Source of the DNA: Alphaproteobacteria bacterium | Lineage (GTDB): Bacteria > Pseudomonadota > Alphaproteobacteria > Micavibrionales > Micavibrionaceae | Assembly: GCA_030427385.1 (NCBI GenBank) | Contig: JAUHWR010000001.1 | Coordinates: 1,794,042 to 1,858,041, forward strand | Direction of reading: 5' to 3' | Length of the DNA: 64,000 bases | Shown here: positions 3,433 through 14,344 of the stretch, in pieces | Layout: each line of letters starts with the position of its first letter | How positions within the stretch are numbered: the first letter of the stretch is position 1 | The notes under the pieces: generated by a model | The model's input: the letters and a program-made list of their open reading frames with translations, nothing else | What the model was told of the DNA's origin: nothing | Databases searched by the model: none | Position numbers and translations under genes: made by a program

Positions 3433-4116
3433 ATGAAAAAAAATAAGTTTATTGCACTTGGTTTGCTTGCGGCCACATCCTATTTTGCGATGTCCGCTGT
3501 GAATGCATATGCGAGACCCTATCAGCTAAATAAAAGCCATAGCGCAGAAAAAACGCACAGTAACATCATTTCCGTTGCACAAACCAGCGACGAAATTGTG
3601 CAAGGCGCGCAAAATTTTATTGAAAATGTATCCGCCCGCGGACTTGCCTTCCTGAGCGATAAAAATCTCAGCGAAGAAGACCGCAAGAAAGATTTTCGCG
3701 CTCTTTTGATGGACAGCTTTGATCTGAATACCATCGGGCGTTTTGCTTTAGGTACAAATTGGCGCAGCCTCACCGCCGAACAAAAAGAAGAATATCTCGA
3801 TCTCTTTCATAATATGGTGATTGAAACCTATTCCCAGCGCTTTCGCGAATATCAGGGGCAACAGATTGTAATTAATCGCGCCCGTCCCGAAGGTGAAAAA
3901 GATTCGATCGTAAATTCAAAGATCATTTCCACCGATGGCTCGCCAGATATCCAACTTGATTGGCGCGTGCGCTATAAAGATGGTCAATATCGGATCATTG
4001 ACGTTCTGGTAGAGGGCGTAAGCATGTCCCTCACGCAACGTAGCGAATTCAGCTCCATCGTCCAAAGAGGCGGCGGCAATGTTGAATCTTTGTTGGTTAA
4101 ACTCAGAGAACGCTAA
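3433..4116 (+). CDS. mlaC: MlaC/Ttg2D-family periplasmic phospholipid carrier
   Basis: Periplasmic shuttle that carries phospholipid between the outer-membrane MlaA complex and the inner-membrane Mla transporter. The 227-residue protein begins with a basic N-terminus (MKKNKF) and a hydrophobic stretch giving a signal peptide to about residue 27. The rest matches the MlaC (toluene tolerance Ttg2) family: FDLNTIGRFALGTNWR, then LTAEQKEEYLDLFHNMV, then a beta-rich part with DWRVRYKDGQYRIIDVLVEG and a C-terminal SLTQRSEFSSIVQRGGGNVE. The start ATG is preceded by AAAGG. Its position just after mlaA supports the call. Confidence 0.9.
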   Translation: MKKNKFIALGLLAATSYFAMSAVNAYARPYQLNKSHSAEKTHSNIISVAQTSDEIVQGAQNFIENVSARGLAFLSDKNLSEEDRKKDFRALLMDSFDLNTIGRFALGTNWRSLTAEQKEEYLDLFHNMVIETYSQRFREYQGQQIVINRARPEGEKDSIVNSKIISTDGSPDIQLDWRVRYKDGQYRIIDVLVEGVSMSLTQRSEFSSIVQRGGGNVESLLVKLRER

Positions 4117-4152
4117 AATTCCCGCACAGCATTATTCCATTTATAGAATCTT

Positions 4153-4188
4153 GTATGTCGAGCATTCAAATCGCATCGACATACTTTT
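4153..4188 (+). terminator. Likely terminator after mlaC
   Basis: GTATGTCGA at 4153-4161 and TCGACATAC at 4176-4184 form a perfect 9-bp stem with a 14-base loop, followed by TTTT. It lies 36 bases past the mlaC stop, in the gap between convergent genes. The long loop makes it less typical. Confidence 0.5.
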
Positions 4189-4258
4189 ATTTGCGCTAAA
4201 GATAATATAGAGAAAAATTACAGAGGGGGCGAGGATTTAAAAAAGCTTATAAAAAGTT

Positions 4259-7153
4259 TTAATCATCATCAACACCTACATTTTCCCTGAGCTGCTTATT
4301 CCCGCCGCCAATGCGCCCCAATGCGCCGCCGCCAAGTGCGGCAGTGGCTTTAACACCTGTTCCAACCAAGCCCATAATTTCGCTTGCCTGATCATGCTGG
4401 AAGTCACCGAATGTTTTCGCCGCAACACCGGCCCAACGTAGAATCTGGTTCGGAATACTGTCAATCAGCTTAAAGGAAGTCAGCGCCATCATATAAACAA
4501 TGATCGCATATATGACCGTATAGAAGAACTGGTCAATCGGCCCCCTGAAATCGTCAAGATCAAATGGATCCTGATTCCCGGGGGTTGCGCGGCCATTTGC
4601 CTGCTCAACCGCATCAAAAGCCGCAAAACCGCCGATATTGGCAACTACCAGATCAAACATATCATTCAACACTTTAACCATCGCCATAAAGATGGAAATA
4701 CTACCAAGGAATCCCATTAATATCAAAATCGGGCGTATTAATATTTCAAGTATCAGCCAATATCCACTTGATGCGCCGTCTCCTATAATACCTTCACCAT
4801 CCAGCTGTAAATGCGCGAGCGCCCATAGCGGTAGACCAACCATCGCCTCAAAAATAGCCTTCACCCAATTGGCAACGGCAAACATAAAATAGATAAATGG
4901 CAGATATGGTAAAACATAAAACAACACAAACCCGATCGTTAAACCGATCATGCCGAATGTCGCCATAACGCCGGTCATCTGCTGAATCATTCCCGATAGT
5001 GGTTTCCCAACTGCTTCTTTTATCGGTTGGAATCCCATCGCACTACCAATCGCGGTGCCGCCGAAGGCTATAATCGTGGAATTAACCATTCCGTTACCCA
5101 AAATACTTAACTGCGCCAATGGATGAATACCTGTTTGTTGCCTCATATCAAACAAGCCACTTAAACCGAAAATACTGACGATAGTATCAATGACCGGATT
5201 TTTACCGATCCCCATGCTTTGACGGAAGGCAATATCACGATCCTGATTCACACCTGCGCCCAGTTCCTCACTATTACAATAATATTCATAGGTATTATTT
5301 ATCGCGGTAGCCACGAGCAAATCACTCACCTTAGAGAAATTCATGACCTTAGCTCCGGGAAGCTCCGGATTCATCATATCGCATACTGCTGAGCTTGAAC
5401 TTGCCGTATTACGCAACTGCATCACTTCTTCTATAACTGCTGGATAAAGCCGCACATCGGGCATATTAAATACGGCGCCCTGAACCAAACCATTTGCCTC
5501 TGCAATACGGTTATAATACAGTGCGGCGCACATCCAACCGCATTCCGTCAATGCCGCATCTACATCAAAGATAGAGGGCGGCGCAATGGCCGCATCAACA
5601 GCATTAATAATATTTGCTGCAATGACCTCATCACGGCCCCTGATAAGATTATTAATTTCGCGAATTTCTGGCTCATAAGCGCCATGATTAGGTAGTACAG
5701 AATGAGTAAAACCCTGCCCAATTTCATCAATCAGAGGGTCATTCCAAAGATTATTGATAATCAAATTATACTGCCCGGCTTTAATTAAGCTGGATATTGC
5801 TTCGGGGCCAGAACCGGTTAAAACAATTTCACCGCAATAGGGAATAACAAAACCCGGCTCTGCGCCATATTCCTTTGGCATGCCCGCATATGTCGCCGGA
5901 TTGGCAACATTACACGGCACAGGTTCACCAGGCTGTGCATAGGGTGATGGCGCAGTTGTTTCATGAACGGGAATTCTCTGCCCAAATCTAATTCTGATAT
6001 CACCGTAATTTGATAATTCCAGCGCATTATTATAACTCGTTGGGCCTGTGCCTAACGGCGGGCCGGTCGATAAATTTTCACAATTATCATACTCACTAGC
6101 ACGATTTGTCACAATATAAGCATCGATTACGCGTCCATTTACCTGTTCCTCTGCATGTTTACATGTTTTCACCAGGCTCATAAAACGCACCAAACCAACG
6201 CTAGAAGGGAAATTACTTCTGTTGGGGGGCGCTATTAACGTATCATGATCGCCGGCAAGATCCTCCGCAATCGCTATATTCACTTCGCGCCACGCATTAC
6301 TCGCCATACCGGTACCGTAATAAGCCGCATTGAGTGTAATAATTTGCGCCAAGTTGAATCCTTGATAAAATGGCATAATTAAGGCTGCGAAAAAAATCAC
6401 ACGTACGGGTATCCACGTCTTATTACCGCGTTGCCCCCACATTGTTCCATTTATGGCCGTCTCCGCCGTCATAGTAACGACGTAATATAGTAAAATTACA
6501 AAAGCGAGTGCTATAATCGTGTAATTATAAAATGCAATCATACTGTGGAACCCAGTATGCATCGCGGATGGAAACGCAGTATATGGCGCTAAAGCTTGAC
6601 CGGACGCATCATTACATACTGTCGCTGTCCCAACACAGCTTTCAAAAAAACCTGCCGTACCCGTTATATTCTGAAGTCCAAAAACAAGATCTAGAAAACG
6701 CAAAGCGTAATCTTGTTCGGGCACTGTTGGTACGAATAGAAAATCAAAACCACCTGCGCCGCCTATATCCGTGATCATATCATTCGGGATTGCAAAGGCC
6801 GAATCCATCATCAACGCCCCTGCCATCAAAGTAAACTGAACCAAAAACGTTATAAATGCCGTAATAATGATTAAATATGCCGCAATCTGATCTAAATGCT
6901 TTCGATCCCACGTTATAGATCTTGCCCCTTCGGCAAGCACATTAATTAGACCAAATTTCTTAAAATTTTGTGCCTGTAGATAAGGATGAGAGGGTTGAAA
7001 AATTCTTACCGATCCAAAAATACTCGCAATATAGTACGCAAATAAACGAAAACCACTATGAAAAATATTTAGGACACGCGGTAATAAACCAGGTAGTAAT
7101 GCATACCTGACAACGCCTCCCGTAATACTTTTTCCTGCATGAGTTTCATTCAT
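4259..7153 (-). CDS. DotA/TraY-family type IVB secretion membrane protein, paralogue 1
   Basis: Very large (964 aa) integral membrane protein of the DotA/TraY family, known from Dot/Icm (type IVB) secretion and IncI conjugation systems, where DotA sits in the inner membrane or is exported. An N-terminal region with SHPYLQAQNF is followed by a membrane helix at about 90-115, two more near 205-275, a long predicted periplasmic part with scattered cysteines (to about 660), then a cluster of hydrophobic segments. The cluster holds the family block FEAMVGLPLWALAHLQLDGE and later FFYTVIYAIIVYMMALTSFK. The C-terminal 60 residues are Gly/Ala-rich. It is last in a run of three paralogues, 23 bases after its neighbour, so probably co-transcribed. 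Start is the ATG at 7153. Confidence 0.85.
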   Translation of the reverse strand: MNETHAGKSITGGVVRYALLPGLLPRVLNIFHSGFRLFAYYIASIFGSVRIFQPSHPYLQAQNFKKFGLINVLAEGARSITWDRKHLDQIAAYLIIITAFITFLVQFTLMAGALMMDSAFAIPNDMITDIGGAGGFDFLFVPTVPEQDYALRFLDLVFGLQNITGTAGFFESCVGTATVCNDASGQALAPYTAFPSAMHTGFHSMIAFYNYTIIALAFVILLYYVVTMTAETAINGTMWGQRGNKTWIPVRVIFFAALIMPFYQGFNLAQIITLNAAYYGTGMASNAWREVNIAIAEDLAGDHDTLIAPPNRSNFPSSVGLVRFMSLVKTCKHAEEQVNGRVIDAYIVTNRASEYDNCENLSTGPPLGTGPTSYNNALELSNYGDIRIRFGQRIPVHETTAPSPYAQPGEPVPCNVANPATYAGMPKEYGAEPGFVIPYCGEIVLTGSGPEAISSLIKAGQYNLIINNLWNDPLIDEIGQGFTHSVLPNHGAYEPEIREINNLIRGRDEVIAANIINAVDAAIAPPSIFDVDAALTECGWMCAALYYNRIAEANGLVQGAVFNMPDVRLYPAVIEEVMQLRNTASSSSAVCDMMNPELPGAKVMNFSKVSDLLVATAINNTYEYYCNSEELGAGVNQDRDIAFRQSMGIGKNPVIDTIVSIFGLSGLFDMRQQTGIHPLAQLSILGNGMVNSTIIAFGGTAIGSAMGFQPIKEAVGKPLSGMIQQMTGVMATFGMIGLTIGFVLFYVLPYLPFIYFMFAVANWVKAIFEAMVGLPLWALAHLQLDGEGIIGDGASSGYWLILEILIRPILILMGFLGSISIFMAMVKVLNDMFDLVVANIGGFAAFDAVEQANGRATPGNQDPFDLDDFRGPIDQFFYTVIYAIIVYMMALTSFKLIDSIPNQILRWAGVAAKTFGDFQHDQASEIMGLVGTGVKATAALGGGALGRIGGGNKQLRENVGVDDD

Positions 7154-7176
7154 ATAAAATAGATACCTGTTTATGT

Positions 7177-10056
7177 CTATTCGTTGTTTTCTTTGCTATT
7201 TTGTCTATGACGCGCCATTGCTCCTGATAAGCCTTGGCTGAATGCTTCAGCGCCCTGACCAACCTCGCGGATACCGCCTGTCATACCGACAGTGGCTTTG
7301 CTTTGCAATTGCGCGCCGGCATCACCGATTGATTCACTAAAGGCTTCAACATTCTGTCCTAACCAACGAAGGATAAAGTTTGGAATAAGATCGATTAACT
7401 TAAAGGAGGCAAGAGCCAGCATATAAACAATGATCGCATAAATAACCGTATAGAAAAATTCATCAATAGGGGAGCGCCAATCTTCAATGACATCTGCTAA
7501 AAAGCCTCCTCTTTCTGCTTCCATTTGGTCAAACCCGCCCATATTTGCAGTCACCAAAGTCCATAACTCATTTAGCAATTTCACCATGGCACTGAAAATA
7601 AGAGAGCTAGCCAATAAACCAAAAATAATTAAAATCGGGCGTAAGAAAATTTCCAATATCAACATATATCCCGACATCGCGGCATTACCCGGAATTCCAT
7701 CGCCATCAATTCTTAAATGCGCCAGCGCCCATAAAGGTACGCCAACCATCGCCTCAAAAATTCCCTTCACCCACGTACCGACGGCAAAGAAAAAGTAAAC
7801 AAACGGCATTAAGGGAATGAGATAGAATAACACAAATCCCACCGATAACTGAATAGACGCAAAGGTCAGCAAAAAGCTTGCAGCAACGCTACCTGCGCTT
7901 CCCAAGATACCCGCCAAAGATAAACCCAAGCCGCCGCCTGCATATCCAACATTGTTAATCGCTGCTTGAACCAAACCGCGCCCCGCTGCGGCGATTAAAG
8001 CCAAGGGATGAACATTTCTATTTTCAGGCTTACTCATATTGAACACACCATCCAGACCTAACAAAGAATTCAGGAAGCCCATTATCCCGCCTGCCGAGGT
8101 TTCGGCGCTTCCGCCATCGCCCGTTCCGGTTCCGCCGAGCACCCACATACGGTAGGCCTCATACCCCGCCAAAGCCGGCACACGCGTCAATGGATATCCG
8201 TCAAATAGATCAACATCAGCCCCATTTTCACCACCACCCAAAATAATCGGATTAAACCGATCTATGACCGTCATGCTATGGGCATCTTCCTGGCGTTTTT
8301 GTTGCACCACATCCATCGCCATCGGCCAACTATGTGGCTGTGAAGGGAAACTTACTCCAGCGGCAGTAAAGGAGCCATTATTTTGTGCAATGGCATTGTA
8401 ACAAATCGCAGCTCCGCCCCAACCATACTTCAAATTATATGGGTCATTAGGTGGTCCGCACCAATCTATATCATTTTGATTTTGAGCGATCGCTTGGCGC
8501 AACATATCACTCAGCATCAGCTTATAAATCCCGCTTTTTTCTGCTTTAAATAATGACATGTCAGGCGGCGGCGGAGGTGGACATGAACTGACCGGATAAT
8601 ATGCCTGATCACAAACATCTGAATTATTCATCTGTGATGCCGCATAAGCAGCCGCCGCATCGATAATATCCTGATCTTGCCACATGATTGACAAAACATA
8701 TAGATAGCTCGCCTGAATTTGCAACGATATCGGGTTTTCCGGATCGGCTACCGGCATAGTTATAGACCCGCAGAATGGTTCTACATTGACAAATTTATCC
8801 TTATATTCTGGCGATCTGTTTCCGAATATAATGTAAATACTCTCCATTCCGGTATCATTTACCATCTGTCTCATTAGCGTCAAATTACTACCGGCACTAG
8901 GATTTCCTGGATTAGGAGGTCCTCCGCCCGGAAAGAAATATGGTCCCACAGCGGAAGGCGTTCCATCAACGTCAGTCGCACCAAAGGGGAATAAGCTAAC
9001 CGTAGCAGTAGGGGCATTCAACGCATTATCATTGACATAAAATCCCTGTATAGGCGTAGTTACTTGACCCGCTGTGTGATCGTATGTTTGATAAAATTGA
9101 ACGGCATATTGGCATGCGCGCGCCGTCAACATATATTGGATCATAGGCGCGGGATCGGGAACATTAGGCATTGCAATTAATGTATTACGTGGGCCAAACG
9201 GTGTTTCCCCTGCACCTGCCGCGGCTATATCCCCGTAATAAAATGTCAATCCGTTGGTTGCAAAATTCGACCCCCATTTGGCTGAAATCAAAACTATATA
9301 TTGTGCGGCATTTAAGCCATTTGCCATCGGCACTAACAACCCAAAAGCCATGACCAAACGAATCGGCGCCCAAACACGGTTAAAACGACGACCAAAGGGC
9401 GTACCATCACGTACCGTCTCGCCTAAAATTGTAATCACAAAATACGTTAGAATTAACAGTCCAACCACTAACATCGCTACGTTAAACGTCTGAAATAACG
9501 CCTGAAGACCAAAATGGTAAGGATAAGGGAAATCACCCACACCAATGCCCGGCGGATCATAGCGTGAGTTGAACATATCATCGACGCCAAATACGCGGTC
9601 CAACATCATAAATGCGATATCATCGGCCTCTGTAAATTGACGACCAATAATTGTTGATAAATTGAATATCGTCAGGGCATCAAATTGCGGCGGCGGAACC
9701 GGAACCGGGCCTGCCATGGCAAATGGAAACATCACAGAGCATGCTAAAATAATGATCTGCACAAAGAAGATAACAATACCGAAAGTAATCACGCAGAAAA
9801 TTATAATCTGATCCAGATGTTTGGTATCAAACACTAAATTTTTATAGGCCTGTTTTAATACTTGAGATACGGAATATTGCCCAAAATATTGGGCCTGTAA
9901 ATAAGGGTGATGTGATGGCAGCAACCGAACGGATTCAAAAATCATTGCTACAAAATAAGCGGCATGGGAAAAGACCATAGAGAATAAATCACGTAGCCGC
10001 GGCAAAATTCGCGGCAATGTAACATACCCTACTGCATCTCTTGTTCTAACTTCCAT
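7177..10056 (-). CDS. DotA/TraY-family type IVB secretion membrane protein, paralogue 2
   Basis: Middle of three tandem DotA/TraY paralogues (959 aa). It shares the N-terminal block SHHPYLQAQYFGQYSV, early membrane helices near 90-125 and 205-265, and the C-terminal block FEAMVGVPLWALAHLRIDGD with FFYTVIYAIIVYMLALASFK. The middle part, predicted periplasmic, differs in sequence from both neighbours and contains a proline run (CPPPPPPDMS) and several cysteines. The C-terminal tail is hydrophilic and Gln/Asn-rich. Spacing to both neighbours is 22-23 bases, consistent with one operon. Known: DotA is needed for Dot/Icm secretion. Inferred: this protein is part of the same kind of machine; whether the three form one mixed complex cannot be read from sequence. 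Confidence 0.85.
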   Translation of the reverse strand: MEVRTRDAVGYVTLPRILPRLRDLFSMVFSHAAYFVAMIFESVRLLPSHHPYLQAQYFGQYSVSQVLKQAYKNLVFDTKHLDQIIIFCVITFGIVIFFVQIIILACSVMFPFAMAGPVPVPPPQFDALTIFNLSTIIGRQFTEADDIAFMMLDRVFGVDDMFNSRYDPPGIGVGDFPYPYHFGLQALFQTFNVAMLVVGLLILTYFVITILGETVRDGTPFGRRFNRVWAPIRLVMAFGLLVPMANGLNAAQYIVLISAKWGSNFATNGLTFYYGDIAAAGAGETPFGPRNTLIAMPNVPDPAPMIQYMLTARACQYAVQFYQTYDHTAGQVTTPIQGFYVNDNALNAPTATVSLFPFGATDVDGTPSAVGPYFFPGGGPPNPGNPSAGSNLTLMRQMVNDTGMESIYIIFGNRSPEYKDKFVNVEPFCGSITMPVADPENPISLQIQASYLYVLSIMWQDQDIIDAAAAYAASQMNNSDVCDQAYYPVSSCPPPPPPDMSLFKAEKSGIYKLMLSDMLRQAIAQNQNDIDWCGPPNDPYNLKYGWGGAAICYNAIAQNNGSFTAAGVSFPSQPHSWPMAMDVVQQKRQEDAHSMTVIDRFNPIILGGGENGADVDLFDGYPLTRVPALAGYEAYRMWVLGGTGTGDGGSAETSAGGIMGFLNSLLGLDGVFNMSKPENRNVHPLALIAAAGRGLVQAAINNVGYAGGGLGLSLAGILGSAGSVAASFLLTFASIQLSVGFVLFYLIPLMPFVYFFFAVGTWVKGIFEAMVGVPLWALAHLRIDGDGIPGNAAMSGYMLILEIFLRPILIIFGLLASSLIFSAMVKLLNELWTLVTANMGGFDQMEAERGGFLADVIEDWRSPIDEFFYTVIYAIIVYMLALASFKLIDLIPNFILRWLGQNVEAFSESIGDAGAQLQSKATVGMTGGIREVGQGAEAFSQGLSGAMARHRQNSKENNE

Positions 10057-10078
10057 TTAACTAACTTTCCCCATATTT

Positions 10079-13000
10079 TTAAGGCCCGCTTCCCGGCACA
10101 TTACCTGGCTTAGACACCAGACGCGTTGCGGATGATTTAGCCCCGCTCACCTGTTGTCCTAAACGCCCATTAATCATAGAACCGCCCATACGCCCCAGAC
10201 CCTGCGCACCTTGTCTTAGACCTTGTAATCCCTGACGTCCAACCAAATAGCCTCCAACCGCAGCATATTGTGTCAGATTCTCAGCAGGATCCTGATAACT
10301 ATCACCAAAGCTTCTTACACCCGCACCGGCCCAACGCAGAATAGATTGCGGAATATTATCAATCAGTTTAAAGCAGGACAGCCCAATCATATAAACGGTC
10401 ATGACATAGATAACTGTAAAGAAAAACTCATCAATAATCGCTCTTTTGAAAATACCATCGGGGGTAAACTCCCCTAAAAATCCTGTTAATAATTCTTCAT
10501 CATTCCCCATCACATTCTGAACAACCAGATCAAAAATCTCATGTAGCACGCGTACCATAGCTCCAAAGATAATGAAACTGGCAATAAGAGAGAACACAAT
10601 CAGAATTGGACGTACAAATATCTCCAGTAATAGGAAATAGCCATTAGCAGCCGCATCACCCGGCAGGCCTTCCTTATCAATCCGAATATGTGCCAGCGCC
10701 CATAACGGCACACCAACCATGGCTTCAAATATAGTCTTCACCCATGTACCGACCGCAAAGAAGAAATACAGGAACGGCATGAACGGCAAGACATAAAATA
10801 ATAAGAACCCAGCTGTTAAACCGATCAAAGCGATACTAGAAAGCGCACTACTCAATGCGCCCATCAACGGGCCACTAACGCTGTCTTTACTAGCCTCTTG
10901 CATACCGCTACCGACCGCAAAAATAAGCGAGCCGACAACATTCATCAATGTACTATTCACCAAATCTTTACCGATTGCGACCAATTGCGCCATTGGATGG
11001 ACATCAAAATATTCTTCTTCCAGAATATTCATTAACCGTTTTGTCCCGAAAATACCATGCATCACGCGCTCGATTAAGTTATCATCCGCCATGATAGAGA
11101 TACTGCCGGATGCAATACCACTTTCCTGCCAATCTTTATGAACATTATATAAGACCCAGCCAATATCCATATCTCTTGTGCTCATCAGTTCCTTCAACGA
11201 ACGTCCGTCACTCACCCCTTGGGGGTTATAAGATTCTTCTAAAGATAAGTTATTATCCAATGCCATACGATGCTTACTAATTTCATCCATAACAGCAGGA
11301 ACCCTTGACATGTAAGGAATGTTTGCCGCTGCATCAAACTCACGCCCAATCACAGAGGCTAAATTATTATACCACATCCCCGCGGCAGCCCAGCCACGCT
11401 CACGCACTGTGGATGTCATGTCATAAAGATCCGGCACAGCAAGCATTGCTAGCCATGCATCTTGAATATATCCTTCAATGTAAACTTCTCTGGTCATAAA
11501 ATGACTAGTCTTAAGCTCAGAACTTGGAGGATCATAACATTCGGGAGAACCAGGATTTAGCGCATGACGACGTGCCGATAAAACAGGATCCGGATCAAAT
11601 ATAGAGGTCGTCGCAAAATCTAAATCTGTGATCAAACATGGGCGGAACCATTCTCCGAAACCGGTTTCTTTATTCTCTGTATAACGCGCTGCAATGGCTG
11701 TATTCTCTTCTGCAAACCATTCATCGATTAACATTTCATAATACCCTTTTTGCAGATGCCATGCTCCCGCCGGGTCGCTCCCCGCCATAATAGGCGCGGC
11801 CGTCGTCGTCGTTAACGTAACCTCCCCGCAATAAGGAATAATTGTATCTGGATCATTTGCGCCCGGAACAGGGGCACCAAAACGGATCACCACATCACCA
11901 TAATCAAAAAATGCCAAGGCAATATCGTAATTATCAAATGGTATGCCACCACCGCCCGTCCTAAATCTAGCGGCGCCGACTCTCGAAACCCCTACATAGA
12001 CAGTATTGTCAGGATCCGTAAGCGCCACAGGCGGAATACCCGGCTTCACAAGCCATGGACGAATGGGCTGAAACTCAACTGTCCCTCGTCTTTCATTGAT
12101 AAAGCCGCGGGCTTTCATATAGGCATACTCACAGGCCTTCACAAGCTGCATTGAAGCGATAAACGGCGATGCATCACTCATATTAGGTCGGGGCAATAAA
12201 TGCTCTGATCCGCCTTGCCCTGTTCCGCCATTACCCATACCGGCAACATTGGGATTTGCATATCCACGAGAGGCATAATTCGCCGCAACAGTATCATTAT
12301 AAGCCAGCCAACCATTAGTCGCCAAACCTGAACCCAGCTTTGCAATTGCAAGCGTCAAATATTGCCCTGAATTTAGTCCGTAAGCCACCGGAATTAGTAA
12401 GCCAATCGCTACCAACAATCTGATCGGCCCCCATACTGTATTAAATCTGGCGCCAAATGGCACACCGGTTGAAGCAGTTTCTGCAATAATAACAACCACA
12501 AAATAGATAAAAATCAGCACCGCCACAAACAACAATGACCAGGAATAAAACTCCAATAAGCTATGTAAGCCAGCATGATAAGCATATACCGGCGCCGCCC
12601 CGAACACAGGAATTGAGCCCGCCACACATGGCGCGATTGTCGCATTGGCGGGATCATCTGTTCCCAAAGCACAAGATCCGAAAAATCCCGGCACACCGAA
12701 TACAAAATCCAATAACATAAAGGCGTTATCGCTATCGGGATTCATCGTCTCAAACATGCCACCGGCATAAGCTTTAGAGAATATAAATCCGAATATAATC
12801 AAGACAATCTGAGAAACAAGAAGAACCAAACCAACTAAAATCACGCCAAATATTAATACCTGGTCGATATATTTCAGCTCAAATCTTAAATTTTTGGCCG
12901 CTGCCGCCACAACAAGACGAATGCCATAACGCCCCTTATTTTCAGACAATAAGTAAGGATGCCCCTGTGGCAGAAGACGTACAGCATAGTAAATATGTGC

Positions 13001-13108
13001 AATTAGATAGGCAAGCCATCCAAACCCATCGACCACCAACGACTTAAAGCGGGGAAAAATCCCCGGCAACATCGTGTAGGCCGCAACTTGTCTTTTATTT
13101 ATGTTCAT
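10079..13108 (-). CDS. DotA/TraY-family type IVB secretion membrane protein, paralogue 3
   Basis: First gene of the three-paralogue run and the longest (1009 aa, close to the size of Legionella DotA). N-terminal LLPQGHPYLLSENKGRYGIR corresponds to the SHPYLQAQ blocks of the other two. Membrane segments lie near 85-120, 190-220 and 235-260, followed by a long predicted periplasmic region to about 680 and a C-terminal membrane cluster with FEAMVGVPLWALAHIRIDKE and FFFTVIYVMTVYMIGLSCFK. The tail is Gly/Gln/Arg-rich and probably cytoplasmic. The 113 bases upstream, before the ferredoxin gene, are AT-rich and probably hold the operon promoter, though no clear -35/-10 pair stands out. Confidence 0.85.
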   Translation of the reverse strand: MNINKRQVAAYTMLPGIFPRFKSLVVDGFGWLAYLIAHIYYAVRLLPQGHPYLLSENKGRYGIRLVVAAAAKNLRFELKYIDQVLIFGVILVGLVLLVSQIVLIIFGFIFSKAYAGGMFETMNPDSDNAFMLLDFVFGVPGFFGSCALGTDDPANATIAPCVAGSIPVFGAAPVYAYHAGLHSLLEFYSWSLLFVAVLIFIYFVVVIIAETASTGVPFGARFNTVWGPIRLLVAIGLLIPVAYGLNSGQYLTLAIAKLGSGLATNGWLAYNDTVAANYASRGYANPNVAGMGNGGTGQGGSEHLLPRPNMSDASPFIASMQLVKACEYAYMKARGFINERRGTVEFQPIRPWLVKPGIPPVALTDPDNTVYVGVSRVGAARFRTGGGGIPFDNYDIALAFFDYGDVVIRFGAPVPGANDPDTIIPYCGEVTLTTTTAAPIMAGSDPAGAWHLQKGYYEMLIDEWFAEENTAIAARYTENKETGFGEWFRPCLITDLDFATTSIFDPDPVLSARRHALNPGSPECYDPPSSELKTSHFMTREVYIEGYIQDAWLAMLAVPDLYDMTSTVRERGWAAAGMWYNNLASVIGREFDAAANIPYMSRVPAVMDEISKHRMALDNNLSLEESYNPQGVSDGRSLKELMSTRDMDIGWVLYNVHKDWQESGIASGSISIMADDNLIERVMHGIFGTKRLMNILEEEYFDVHPMAQLVAIGKDLVNSTLMNVVGSLIFAVGSGMQEASKDSVSGPLMGALSSALSSIALIGLTAGFLLFYVLPFMPFLYFFFAVGTWVKTIFEAMVGVPLWALAHIRIDKEGLPGDAAANGYFLLLEIFVRPILIVFSLIASFIIFGAMVRVLHEIFDLVVQNVMGNDEELLTGFLGEFTPDGIFKRAIIDEFFFTVIYVMTVYMIGLSCFKLIDNIPQSILRWAGAGVRSFGDSYQDPAENLTQYAAVGGYLVGRQGLQGLRQGAQGLGRMGGSMINGRLGQQVSGAKSSATRLVSKPGNVPGSGP

Positions 13109-13221
13109 ACGTATATATATAAAATTTAGCTAAATTCAAATTATTACCATTAGTCTACCAACTTATCCTAATACTTACCAATTTTTTGATAGATTTTATC
13201 ATTTTTAATATATCACAAGCA

Positions 13222-13537: not shown

Positions 13538-14344
13538 CTACCCCCTATCATCTTTTTTCATTGGCGGCCCCATAAATATCCCTTTCAAAACATACGAAAA
13601 GCATATGACCACGACAATTGTGGCGGCCATATCAACCAAAAAATTTATTCCGAAATATGCCATAATCATGGCCGTCTGATTTGTCATGAATAGGGGGGAC
13701 AGAATGTTCAATAATACAAGCCCCACCAATAAAAACGGAACATAGCATGTTAACCACGCTCCAATTAAATGTAGTGAAGATGACATCCCCTTCATATTGG
13801 CCAAAAAGCGACGCACCGGTATATCAACGGCGACCGGAACATATAAGATTAAAAATTTAAATCCCCAAATCATCCCTAAAACCGCCATCGTCGCAACGAA
13901 AAACTTCATTAATGATGCTTGCGCGTCCGGCTCTGTTGATAATTGTCTTAATTCATCTTCATTTATCAAAAATGGCAACGTCAAAGCATTTTGCGCCATT
14001 TTAATCAACACGAAAACAATAATAGCGGCAAAAACGGCGCGGCCGCGTGCGGCGATAAAATTCATATCGCGCTCGACTTCACCTGATAATTTCACGGGCC
14101 ATAATTCCCCCAATACGATATAGCGCACGATATGGGCAATCATCCATCCTTCCATAAAATACGCCGGTAACATCACCAAAGTCTGGCGCAAAATATTTTC
14201 ATGAAATCCCAAAAGATACACAATCGCAAAAAATATAATCTTTGTCGCAAACGGAAACGCGGCAAGGCGTATAAAATAAGACTTGTCATTCCATGCCTTA
14301 ATATATGCTCTGCCCGATGTTTCTATAATATCAAATGAAGACAA
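13538..14344 (-). CDS. Polytopic membrane protein of unknown function
   Basis: I do not recognise a family. The 268 residues contain about six hydrophobic segments (near 27-48, 52-75, 103-125, 145-170, 197-222 and 228-255), separated by short charged loops, and end in a basic/acidic tail (KKDDRG). The start is a TTG, with AAAGG nine bases before it; no ATG gives a sensible alternative because the next Met lies after the first helix. The stop is one base from the ferredoxin start, so the two products are probably made together. A hairpin upstream overlaps the ribosome-binding site. Confidence 0.7.
   Translation of the reverse strand: MSSFDIIETSGRAYIKAWNDKSYFIRLAAFPFATKIIFFAIVYLLGFHENILRQTLVMLPAYFMEGWMIAHIVRYIVLGELWPVKLSGEVERDMNFIAARGRAVFAAIIVFVLIKMAQNALTLPFLINEDELRQLSTEPDAQASLMKFFVATMAVLGMIWGFKFLILYVPVAVDIPVRRFLANMKGMSSSLHLIGAWLTCYVPFLLVGLVLLNILSPLFMTNQTAMIMAYFGINFLVDMAATIVVVICFSYVLKGIFMGPPMKKDDRG

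What the first reader, a model, noticed from the sequence alone, without database searches (positions are those of the whole stretch)
4259..13108. Three tandem DotA/TraY-family genes in one operon
Dot/Icm systems normally have one DotA. Here three genes of 959-1009 codons lie head to tail with 22-23 base gaps, sharing blocks such as FEAMVG(V/L)PLWALAH while their long predicted periplasmic parts differ strongly. Seen: three intact frames and shared blocks. Known: DotA is needed for type IVB secretion. Inferred: a machine with three non-identical DotA-like subunits, perhaps a mixed ring or alternating substrates. The neighbours are housekeeping genes, so it does not look like a mobile island.
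Basis: partly seen in the sequence, partly recalled or inferred. Interest (0 to 1): 0.8.

Follow-up and report, generated by a model that had tools for sequence, protein, structure and literature searches.

The report
Three DotA channel genes in tandem
A family of small alphaproteobacteria related to the bacterial predator Micavibrio carries three different, well preserved copies of DotA, the channel subunit of a type IVB secretion machine, beside only one copy of the other machine parts tested, which suggests a channel built from mixed subunits.

Summary
Three intact genes (1009, 959 and 964 aa; gaps 22 and 23 bases) lie head to tail at 13108-4259, minus strand. All three belong to the DotA/TraY family; the only solved relative found is DotA of the pentameric DotA-IcmX protochannel. 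The array is an old trait of a family whose named members include many labelled Micavibrio: of 73 named loci, 55 hold three and 6 hold four intact tandem dotA genes, and the other 12 are cut by contig ends. Two of seven single-copy loci from sister families have one dotA at the same housekeeping address, which supports origin in place. DotO was found once in 56 of 58 genomes, DotH in 51, a DotB-grade hit in 54. All three copies are under similar purifying selection (dN/dS 0.05-0.17), so none is a decaying spare. Position 2 is not one clade (AU p 1e-4): copies were replaced, converted or gained more than once while arrays keep three or four. I infer, without proof, that the three co-assemble in one hetero-oligomeric protochannel. 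Rickettsiales offer a parallel: several VirB6 paralogues. New variant of a known kind.

The parts
10079..13108 (-). dotA-like gene 1 (first in the operon, 1009 aa)
   Evidence: ORF; TIGR04346 203.5 bits; phmmer to Legionella DotA chain E 2.8e-13; AlphaFold2 model pLDDT 73, pTM 0.69, best PDB match DotA 9ngy (Foldseek E 1.5e-9; VIA Z 18.7)
7177..10056 (-). dotA-like gene 2 (959 aa), 22 bases downstream of gene 1
   Evidence: ORF; TIGR04346 204.6 bits; phmmer to DotA chain E 2.4e-17; not modelled
4259..7153 (-). dotA-like gene 3 (964 aa), 23 bases downstream of gene 2
   Evidence: ORF; TIGR04346 226.1 bits; phmmer to DotA chain E 4.9e-22; AlphaFold2 model pLDDT 76, pTM 0.70, best PDB match DotA 9ngy (Foldseek E 1.5e-13; VIA Z 20.6)
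13109..13221 (-). 113-base A+T-rich gap upstream of gene 1, a possible place of the operon promoter
   Evidence: read; inference only: the promoter scan was at background (29 found, 26.0 expected)

Best explanation
The three genes are one operon for three diverged DotA (VirB6-type) subunits of a single chromosomal type IVB secretion system (T4BSS) in a Micavibrionaceae-type bacterium. In Legionella, DotA and IcmX pentamers form the central protochannel of the machine. Here I infer that the three DotA types co-assemble into that central channel as a hetero-oligomer (for a five-fold ring, for example 2:2:1). Shared hydrophobic cores would keep the ring geometry, while the divergent middle parts would give each subunit its own contacts with the stalk or tip, the cage or the recipient cell. 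Shown: family, fold of two of the three, operon layout, conservation, single copies of the other parts tested, purifying selection on all three. Well supported: origin in place. Inferred: co-assembly and stoichiometry. The recipient (bacterial prey) is a guess from the lifestyle of cultured Micavibrio.
For: Family and fold. Layout: 55 of 73 named loci with exactly three and 6 with four intact tandem copies, the other 12 cut by contig ends; 128 junctions in those 61 loci with a median of 72.5 nt from stop codon to a conserved Pro codon (14 codons into gene 1 of the window), 103 at most 100 nt, 117 at most 150, longest 317. Single machine: DotO in 56 of 58 genomes, once in 53 and in two complementary pieces in 3; DotH once in 51 of 58; one DotB-grade hit above 200 bits in 54 of 58. 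Linkage: in G019 of the same family the triplet (C4:292-300 kb) lies about 12 kb from DotH (C4:312 kb). Constraint: 33 finite dN/dS values 0.049-0.165 in 12 pairs of loci, three more saturated. Shared core: 100 columns nearly invariant across the three classes against 5 class-switch columns (34 loci plus the window). DotA-IcmX pentamer: passages in PMC12981334 and PMC12857230. Precedent: five VirB6 paralogues in Rickettsia (PMC2653234, passages); four interacting VirB6 paralogues in Ehrlichia (title only, in a reference list).
Against: No direct evidence of contact between the three proteins; no complex was modelled. The position-2 rows do not form one clade (AU p 9.5e-5), and positions 2 and 3 re-split inside subclades, which fits interchangeable copies as well as fixed subunits. 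G029 (listed 100% complete) has the dotA triplet but gave no DotO, DotH or DotB-grade hit: an assembly gap or a counterexample. Sister lineages run one, two or four DotA with one DotO, so three is not required in general. No IcmX equivalent was identified. Residues 291-690 were not shown to be periplasmic.
Confidence: 0.5

Rival explanations
1. Alternative channels: each DotA type forms its own homopentameric protochannel, and cells carry a mixed population of machines tuned to different substrates or recipients.
For: Divergence is concentrated in the middle part (26-29% identity against 51-56% in the core). Positions 2 and 3 turned over in several lineages while arrays keep three or four genes.
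Against: Short-spaced operon in most of 128 junctions (117 at most 150 nt to the conserved Pro codon), so no independent transcription is apparent; no array with room for three had fewer; similar constraint on all three is less expected for optional variants.
Confidence: 0.25
2. Division of labour outside one ring: one copy is the channel, while the others act elsewhere, for example as exported DotA (Legionella DotA is itself found in the supernatant) or as an extra assembly or gating part.
For: DotA secretion is reported (PMC12981334 passage citing Nagai and Roy 2001). Gene 3 has a class-specific switch at column 234 (Ala in 1 and 2, Phe in 97% of 3) in a conserved segment.
Against: Proteins 1 and 3, both modelled, match DotA best (Z 18.7 and 20.6), and only 5 class-switch columns were found, so neither looks stripped of channel features.
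Confidence: 0.12
3. Dosage or redundancy: tandem amplification for more DotA, without functional difference.
For: Tandem copies, probably amplified in place; four copies in some lineages.
Against: Copies are only 36-39% identical yet each is constrained (dN/dS 0.05-0.17); position 1 is largely its own lineage.
Confidence: 0.05
4. Mobile or conjugative remnant: the genes belong to an integrated IncI-like element and not to a resident machine.
For: TraY is in the same family, and the genome's T4BSS has a TcpQ-type pilus neighbour. The downstream housekeeping block is not everywhere: mlaC is absent from 14 of 61 named loci with three or more intact genes.
Against: mlaC is present in 47 of those 61 loci and 20 of 30 fetched relatives, and an ABC-F gene lies upstream in 46 of 56; no tRNA in the window; flat G+C.
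Confidence: 0.02

Closest known systems
Legionella Dot/Icm DotA (PDB 9ngy and 9nh0, DotA-IcmX protochannel)
   Same: Only PDB relative with E up to 0.01 of all three by sequence and only significant Foldseek match of proteins 1 and 3; dotI-dotH-dotG-dotF and dotD-dotC-dotB sets elsewhere in the genome
   Different: There a pentamer, the two entries holding 10 chains of one DotA sequence; one dotA per Legionella genome is recalled. Here three diverged paralogues; the DotA equivalog cut-off is not met
TraY of IncI-type conjugation systems (TIGR04346 DotA/TraY family)
   Same: Family profile met by all three; a TcpQ-type pilus gene near dotDCB, and a PilN-type secretin in G047 (below its cut-off)
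   Different: Chromosomal, mostly at a housekeeping address, three copies
Rickettsiales vir (rvh) T4SS with five VirB6 paralogues RvhB6a-e; four VirB6 paralogues in Ehrlichia
   Same: Several strongly diverged paralogues of the VirB6-position subunit kept for long in small alphaproteobacterial genomes (PMC2653234, passages)
   Different: Type IVA, not IVB; VirB6 not DotA; VirB4, VirB8 and VirB9 are doubled there too, whereas here DotO, DotH and DotB are single where found
VirB6 TrwI of the R388 T4SS (PDB 8rt9, 7o3v, 8rtd)
   Same: Next-best fold match to both models (Z 8.3-10.0)
   Different: Much smaller; the match covers 207-263 residues

Membership tests
DotA/TraY family (NCBIfam TIGR04346) | Profile score above the curated cut-off (100 bits) | tested here: met
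   226.1 (protein 3), 204.6 (protein 2) and 203.5 (protein 1) bits
DotA/TraY family (NCBIfam TIGR04346) | DotA fold | tested here: met
   Models of proteins 1 and 3: only PDB match with E at most 0.001 is DotA 9ngy; VIA Z 18.7 (602 residues, rmsd 7.0) and 20.6 (570 residues, rmsd 6.3). Protein 2 was not modelled
T4SS_DotA equivalog (NCBIfam NF033886) | Profile score above the curated cut-off (500 bits) | tested here: not met
   161 (protein 3), 153.3 (protein 2) and 128 (protein 1) bits
Type IVB secretion system (Dot/Icm type) | Core components DotB, DotC, DotD, DotG, DotH, DotI and DotO in the same genome | tested here: met
   Above cut-off: DotI (NF038072, PF11393), DotH (PF12293), DotC-type (PF16932), DotD (PF16816). 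Below their NCBIfam equivalog cut-offs: DotG, DotF, DotD, DotB. DotO by a protein query from a Methylobacterium plasmid, E 1.8e-135
Type IVB secretion system (Dot/Icm type) | IcmX partner of DotA | tested here: inconclusive
   No IcmX hit among the 25 proteins, most from dot neighbourhoods, scanned with NCBIfam; no IcmX query was run on whole genomes
Type IVB secretion system (Dot/Icm type) | Coupling ATPase DotL and adaptors | tested here: inconclusive
   Only PF10412 was tried, in the window's genome: one hit above cut-off, on contig C3; not assigned
DotA-IcmX protochannel | Pentameric assembly on the central axis | not testable with these tools
   No multimer modelling offered; needs biochemistry or cryo-EM

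The most novel reading that the evidence does not exclude
A type IVB machine whose central protochannel is an obligate hetero-oligomer of three (in some lineages four) DotA paralogues, with broken symmetry, evolved in place in a lineage of bacterial predators and used to deliver proteins into bacterial prey.
Probability: 0.3. Interest if true: 0.8.

Novelty: new variant of a known kind. Interest (0 to 1): 0.6.

Why it matters
The DotA-IcmX protochannel is described as a pentameric assembly. A whole family that keeps three diverged DotA paralogues next to single copies of DotO, DotH and DotB is a natural experiment on what the channel subunit does, and it parallels the unexplained VirB6 multiplication in Rickettsiales. 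It also concerns the Micavibrio lineage: the ARL-13 genome paper reported no evidence for a type IV secretion system (PMC3189940, passage), while a 2022 paper detected protein-exporting T4SS of this type in seven Micavibrionales (PMC9418006, passage). Single deletions in a culturable Micavibrio would test both what the paralogues do and whether the machine serves predation.

Tried and rejected
Recent degenerate duplicates: rejected (36-39% identity, intact frames, similar dN/dS). Mobile island: not supported. Several complete T4BSS per genome: rejected for DotO, DotH and DotB. Fusion of neighbouring dotA genes (open frames of about 1800 aa printed): my own ORF reading gave separate genes.

Co-amplification with a partner. 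A family of exported-looking proteins without Pfam, NCBIfam or PDB relatives (alignments A4 and A5) lies among the dot genes in tandem sets: three in the window's genome, two in G023, one in G047. I thought it might be the IcmX/VirB5-like partner, amplified together with DotA. Rejected as stated: its number of matches (matches can be pieces of genes) does not follow the number of DotA (entered by hand): Spearman -0.002 in 39 genomes. No sequence link to IcmX or VirB5 was found. Whether it is an IcmX analogue stays open.

One clade per position: rejected for position 2 (AU p 9.5e-5); the run for position 1 did not finish and position 3 was not tested. Separate trees of the N-terminal, middle and C-terminal parts did not show clean orthology by position in any part, so I cannot say whether conversion, replacement or repeated duplication is the cause. 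G024 without DotA: it also lacks mlaA, so the stretch is probably missing from the assembly. Viral contigs, close relatives of protein 2 only: none encodes one. Promoters and terminators: at background. Paper searches for several DotA copies, for Micavibrio with DotA and for Micavibrionales or Micavibrionaceae with secretion listed no report of this; the 20 hits shown do not concern this gene (mostly the chelator DOTA), so that search says little. The primary protochannel paper (PMC12501162) and the Ehrlichia VirB6 paper (PMC2612412) are not held.
Full report
What is there. On the minus strand of the window three intact ORFs run head to tail: 10079-13108 (1009 aa, here protein 1), 7177-10056 (959 aa, protein 2) and 4259-7153 (964 aa, protein 3), with gaps of 22 and 23 bases. 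Upstream is a 113-base gap and a ferredoxin gene; downstream, on the other strand, mlaC, then mlaA, lptG and lptF (the last three names recalled from the sequences).

Family and fold. All three pass the NCBIfam DotA/TraY profile (203.5, 204.6 and 226.1 bits for proteins 1, 2 and 3; cut-off 100) and fail the narrower DotA equivalog (128, 153 and 161; cut-off 500). In the PDB by sequence each finds only the DotA chain of the Legionella protochannel entries, E 3e-13, 2e-17 and 5e-22. AlphaFold2 models of proteins 1 and 3 (pLDDT 73 and 76) have DotA 9ngy as the only Foldseek match with E at most 0.001 and VIA Z of 18.7 (602 residues, rmsd 7.0) and 20.6 (570 residues, rmsd 6.3), followed by VirB6 TrwI at 8.3-10.0 and then rows below 6. 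Protein 2 was not modelled.

How widespread. In 58 genomes (the window's own and 57 relatives) 56 have DotA/TraY. The window's family f1 shows the tandem array: of 30 f1 loci fetched from relatives, 27 have exactly three intact genes, one has four and two are cut by contig ends. The two genomes without a hit are G024, which also lacks mlaA, and G052 (family f7), which has a fragment at a contig edge. In a scan of named genomes 179 stretches encoded a relative and the best 80 gave 73 loci; 55 have exactly three intact copies, 6 have four, and the remaining 12 are cut by contig ends. The two sets overlap (many contigs have identical lengths, e.g. L091 and G001:C135), so they must not be added. 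G023, a single-contig genome of 2,458,610 bases, has the length that I recall for M. aeruginosavorus EPB; I could not check this. In an even sample of 385 genomes of the class 17 have DotA/TraY at E up to 1e-15; outside f1 I read at most two DotA genes in any of the 13 listed.

Origin. In two f7 genomes (G047, G043) a single dotA lies near the same mlaC-mlaA-lptG-lptF block; five other single-copy loci (L069, L071, L073, L076, L077) do not show it. Within the family mlaC is seen in 20 of 30 fetched loci and in 47 of 61 named loci with three or more intact genes; in at least some others the array sits elsewhere. An ABC-F gene (EttA-like by recall) lies within 9 kb upstream, mostly adjacent, in 46 of 56 sequences, but not in the window or its sister genome, where it is the ferredoxin gene. 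The simplest reading is expansion of one resident dotA in place, with later moves. Trees put position 1 largely apart from 2 and 3. Position 2 is rejected as one clade (AU p 9.5e-5), and positions 2 and 3 re-split in several subclades: copies were replaced, converted, or gained more than once, while arrays keep three or four. Families f3 and f5 carry one, two or four copies; copies of one genome group together there.

One machine. DotO was found in 56 of 58 genomes, once in 53 and in two complementary pieces in 3; DotH once in 51 of 58; a DotB-grade hit (above 200 bits; none reaches the equivalog cut-off) once in 54 of 58. In the window's genome dotD-dotC-dotB lie at C1:283-286 kb and dotI-dotH-dotG-dotF at C1:588-592 kb, far from dotA. 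In G019 the triplet is about 12 kb from DotH. Results against: G029 has the three dotA genes but neither DotO, DotH nor a DotB-grade hit although listed as 100% complete; G032 lacks DotH; G016 (84% complete) lacks DotO, DotH and a DotB-grade hit; G017 and G021 (84% and 77%) lack DotH.

Constraint. In 12 pairs of loci (not all independent) the three positions have dN/dS of 0.049-0.165 (33 finite values, 3 saturated) and similar rates. Between the window and its sister genome synonymous change is saturated or nearly so. In 34 loci plus the window 100 columns are nearly invariant in all three classes and 5 differ in class, among them column 234 of protein 1 (Ala in 1 and 2, Phe in 97% of 3). Divergence is largest in the long middle part.

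Mechanism. Reviews that I read in passages describe DotA and IcmX as a pentameric protochannel on the central axis, DotA in the VirB6 place. Given single copies of the other parts tested, mostly short junctions (117 of 128 at most 150 nt to the conserved Pro codon), no untruncated array with fewer than three genes and similar constraint, I think co-assembly in one hetero-oligomeric channel most likely (0.5), homomeric alternative channels next (0.25). Nothing here shows contact between the proteins. The Rickettsia parallel, five diverged VirB6 paralogues in a small genome (PMC2653234, passages), shows that multiplication of the subunit in this place is known for type IVA systems; I found no report of it for DotA in the searches made, in a library that misses most subscription journals.

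Novelty. Type IVB systems in Micavibrionales are in print in passing (PMC9418006, passage), and DotA is well known. New here, as far as these searches go, is the family-wide, constrained set of three or more DotA paralogues beside otherwise single parts: a new variant of a known kind.

Noticed in passing
L086:1882-3786, 3719-5008 and 5945-8902 (minus strand; window's genome C1 about 292-299 kb): Three tandem exported-looking paralogues (634, 429 and 985 aa) beyond flgK/flgL-like genes (names recalled) from the dotDCB block. Two to seven matches to this family in 34 of 37 f1 genomes and at least one in all 11 f3/f5 genomes. No relative above cut-off in Pfam, NCBIfam or the PDB. Three invariant cysteines in 50 rows; possibly a stalk/tip protein or a secreted substrate of the machine.
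   Followed up: partly
L089:6560-6949, 7260-7649 and 7708-8097 (G047, single-dotA lineage): Three closely similar small membrane-protein genes in a row (one scanned: weak DUF6750 match), followed by a longer protein with a TraQ match below cut-off: a different tandem amplification inside the dot cluster.
   Followed up: no
L059 / genome G029: Intact dotA triplet, but no DotO, DotH, DotB-grade hit or A5-family match in a genome listed as 100% complete: missing cluster in the assembly or loss of the rest of the machine.
   Followed up: no
L085:10885-11745: A DsbG-type disulfide isomerase (NF008657 above cut-off) lies some 1.5 kb before dotDCB; the DotA proteins have conserved cysteines (326 and 427 of protein 1) in their middle part.
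   Followed up: no
L177 / G000:C3:12597-13517: A TraD/TrwB-type ATPase hit on contig C3 of the window's genome, possibly the coupling protein or a plasmid gene.
   Followed up: no
window:13222-13551 and 13538-14344: Ferredoxin and a 268-aa hydrophobic protein sit upstream of dotA in the window and its sister genome; in most other loci an ABC-F gene is there.
   Followed up: partly
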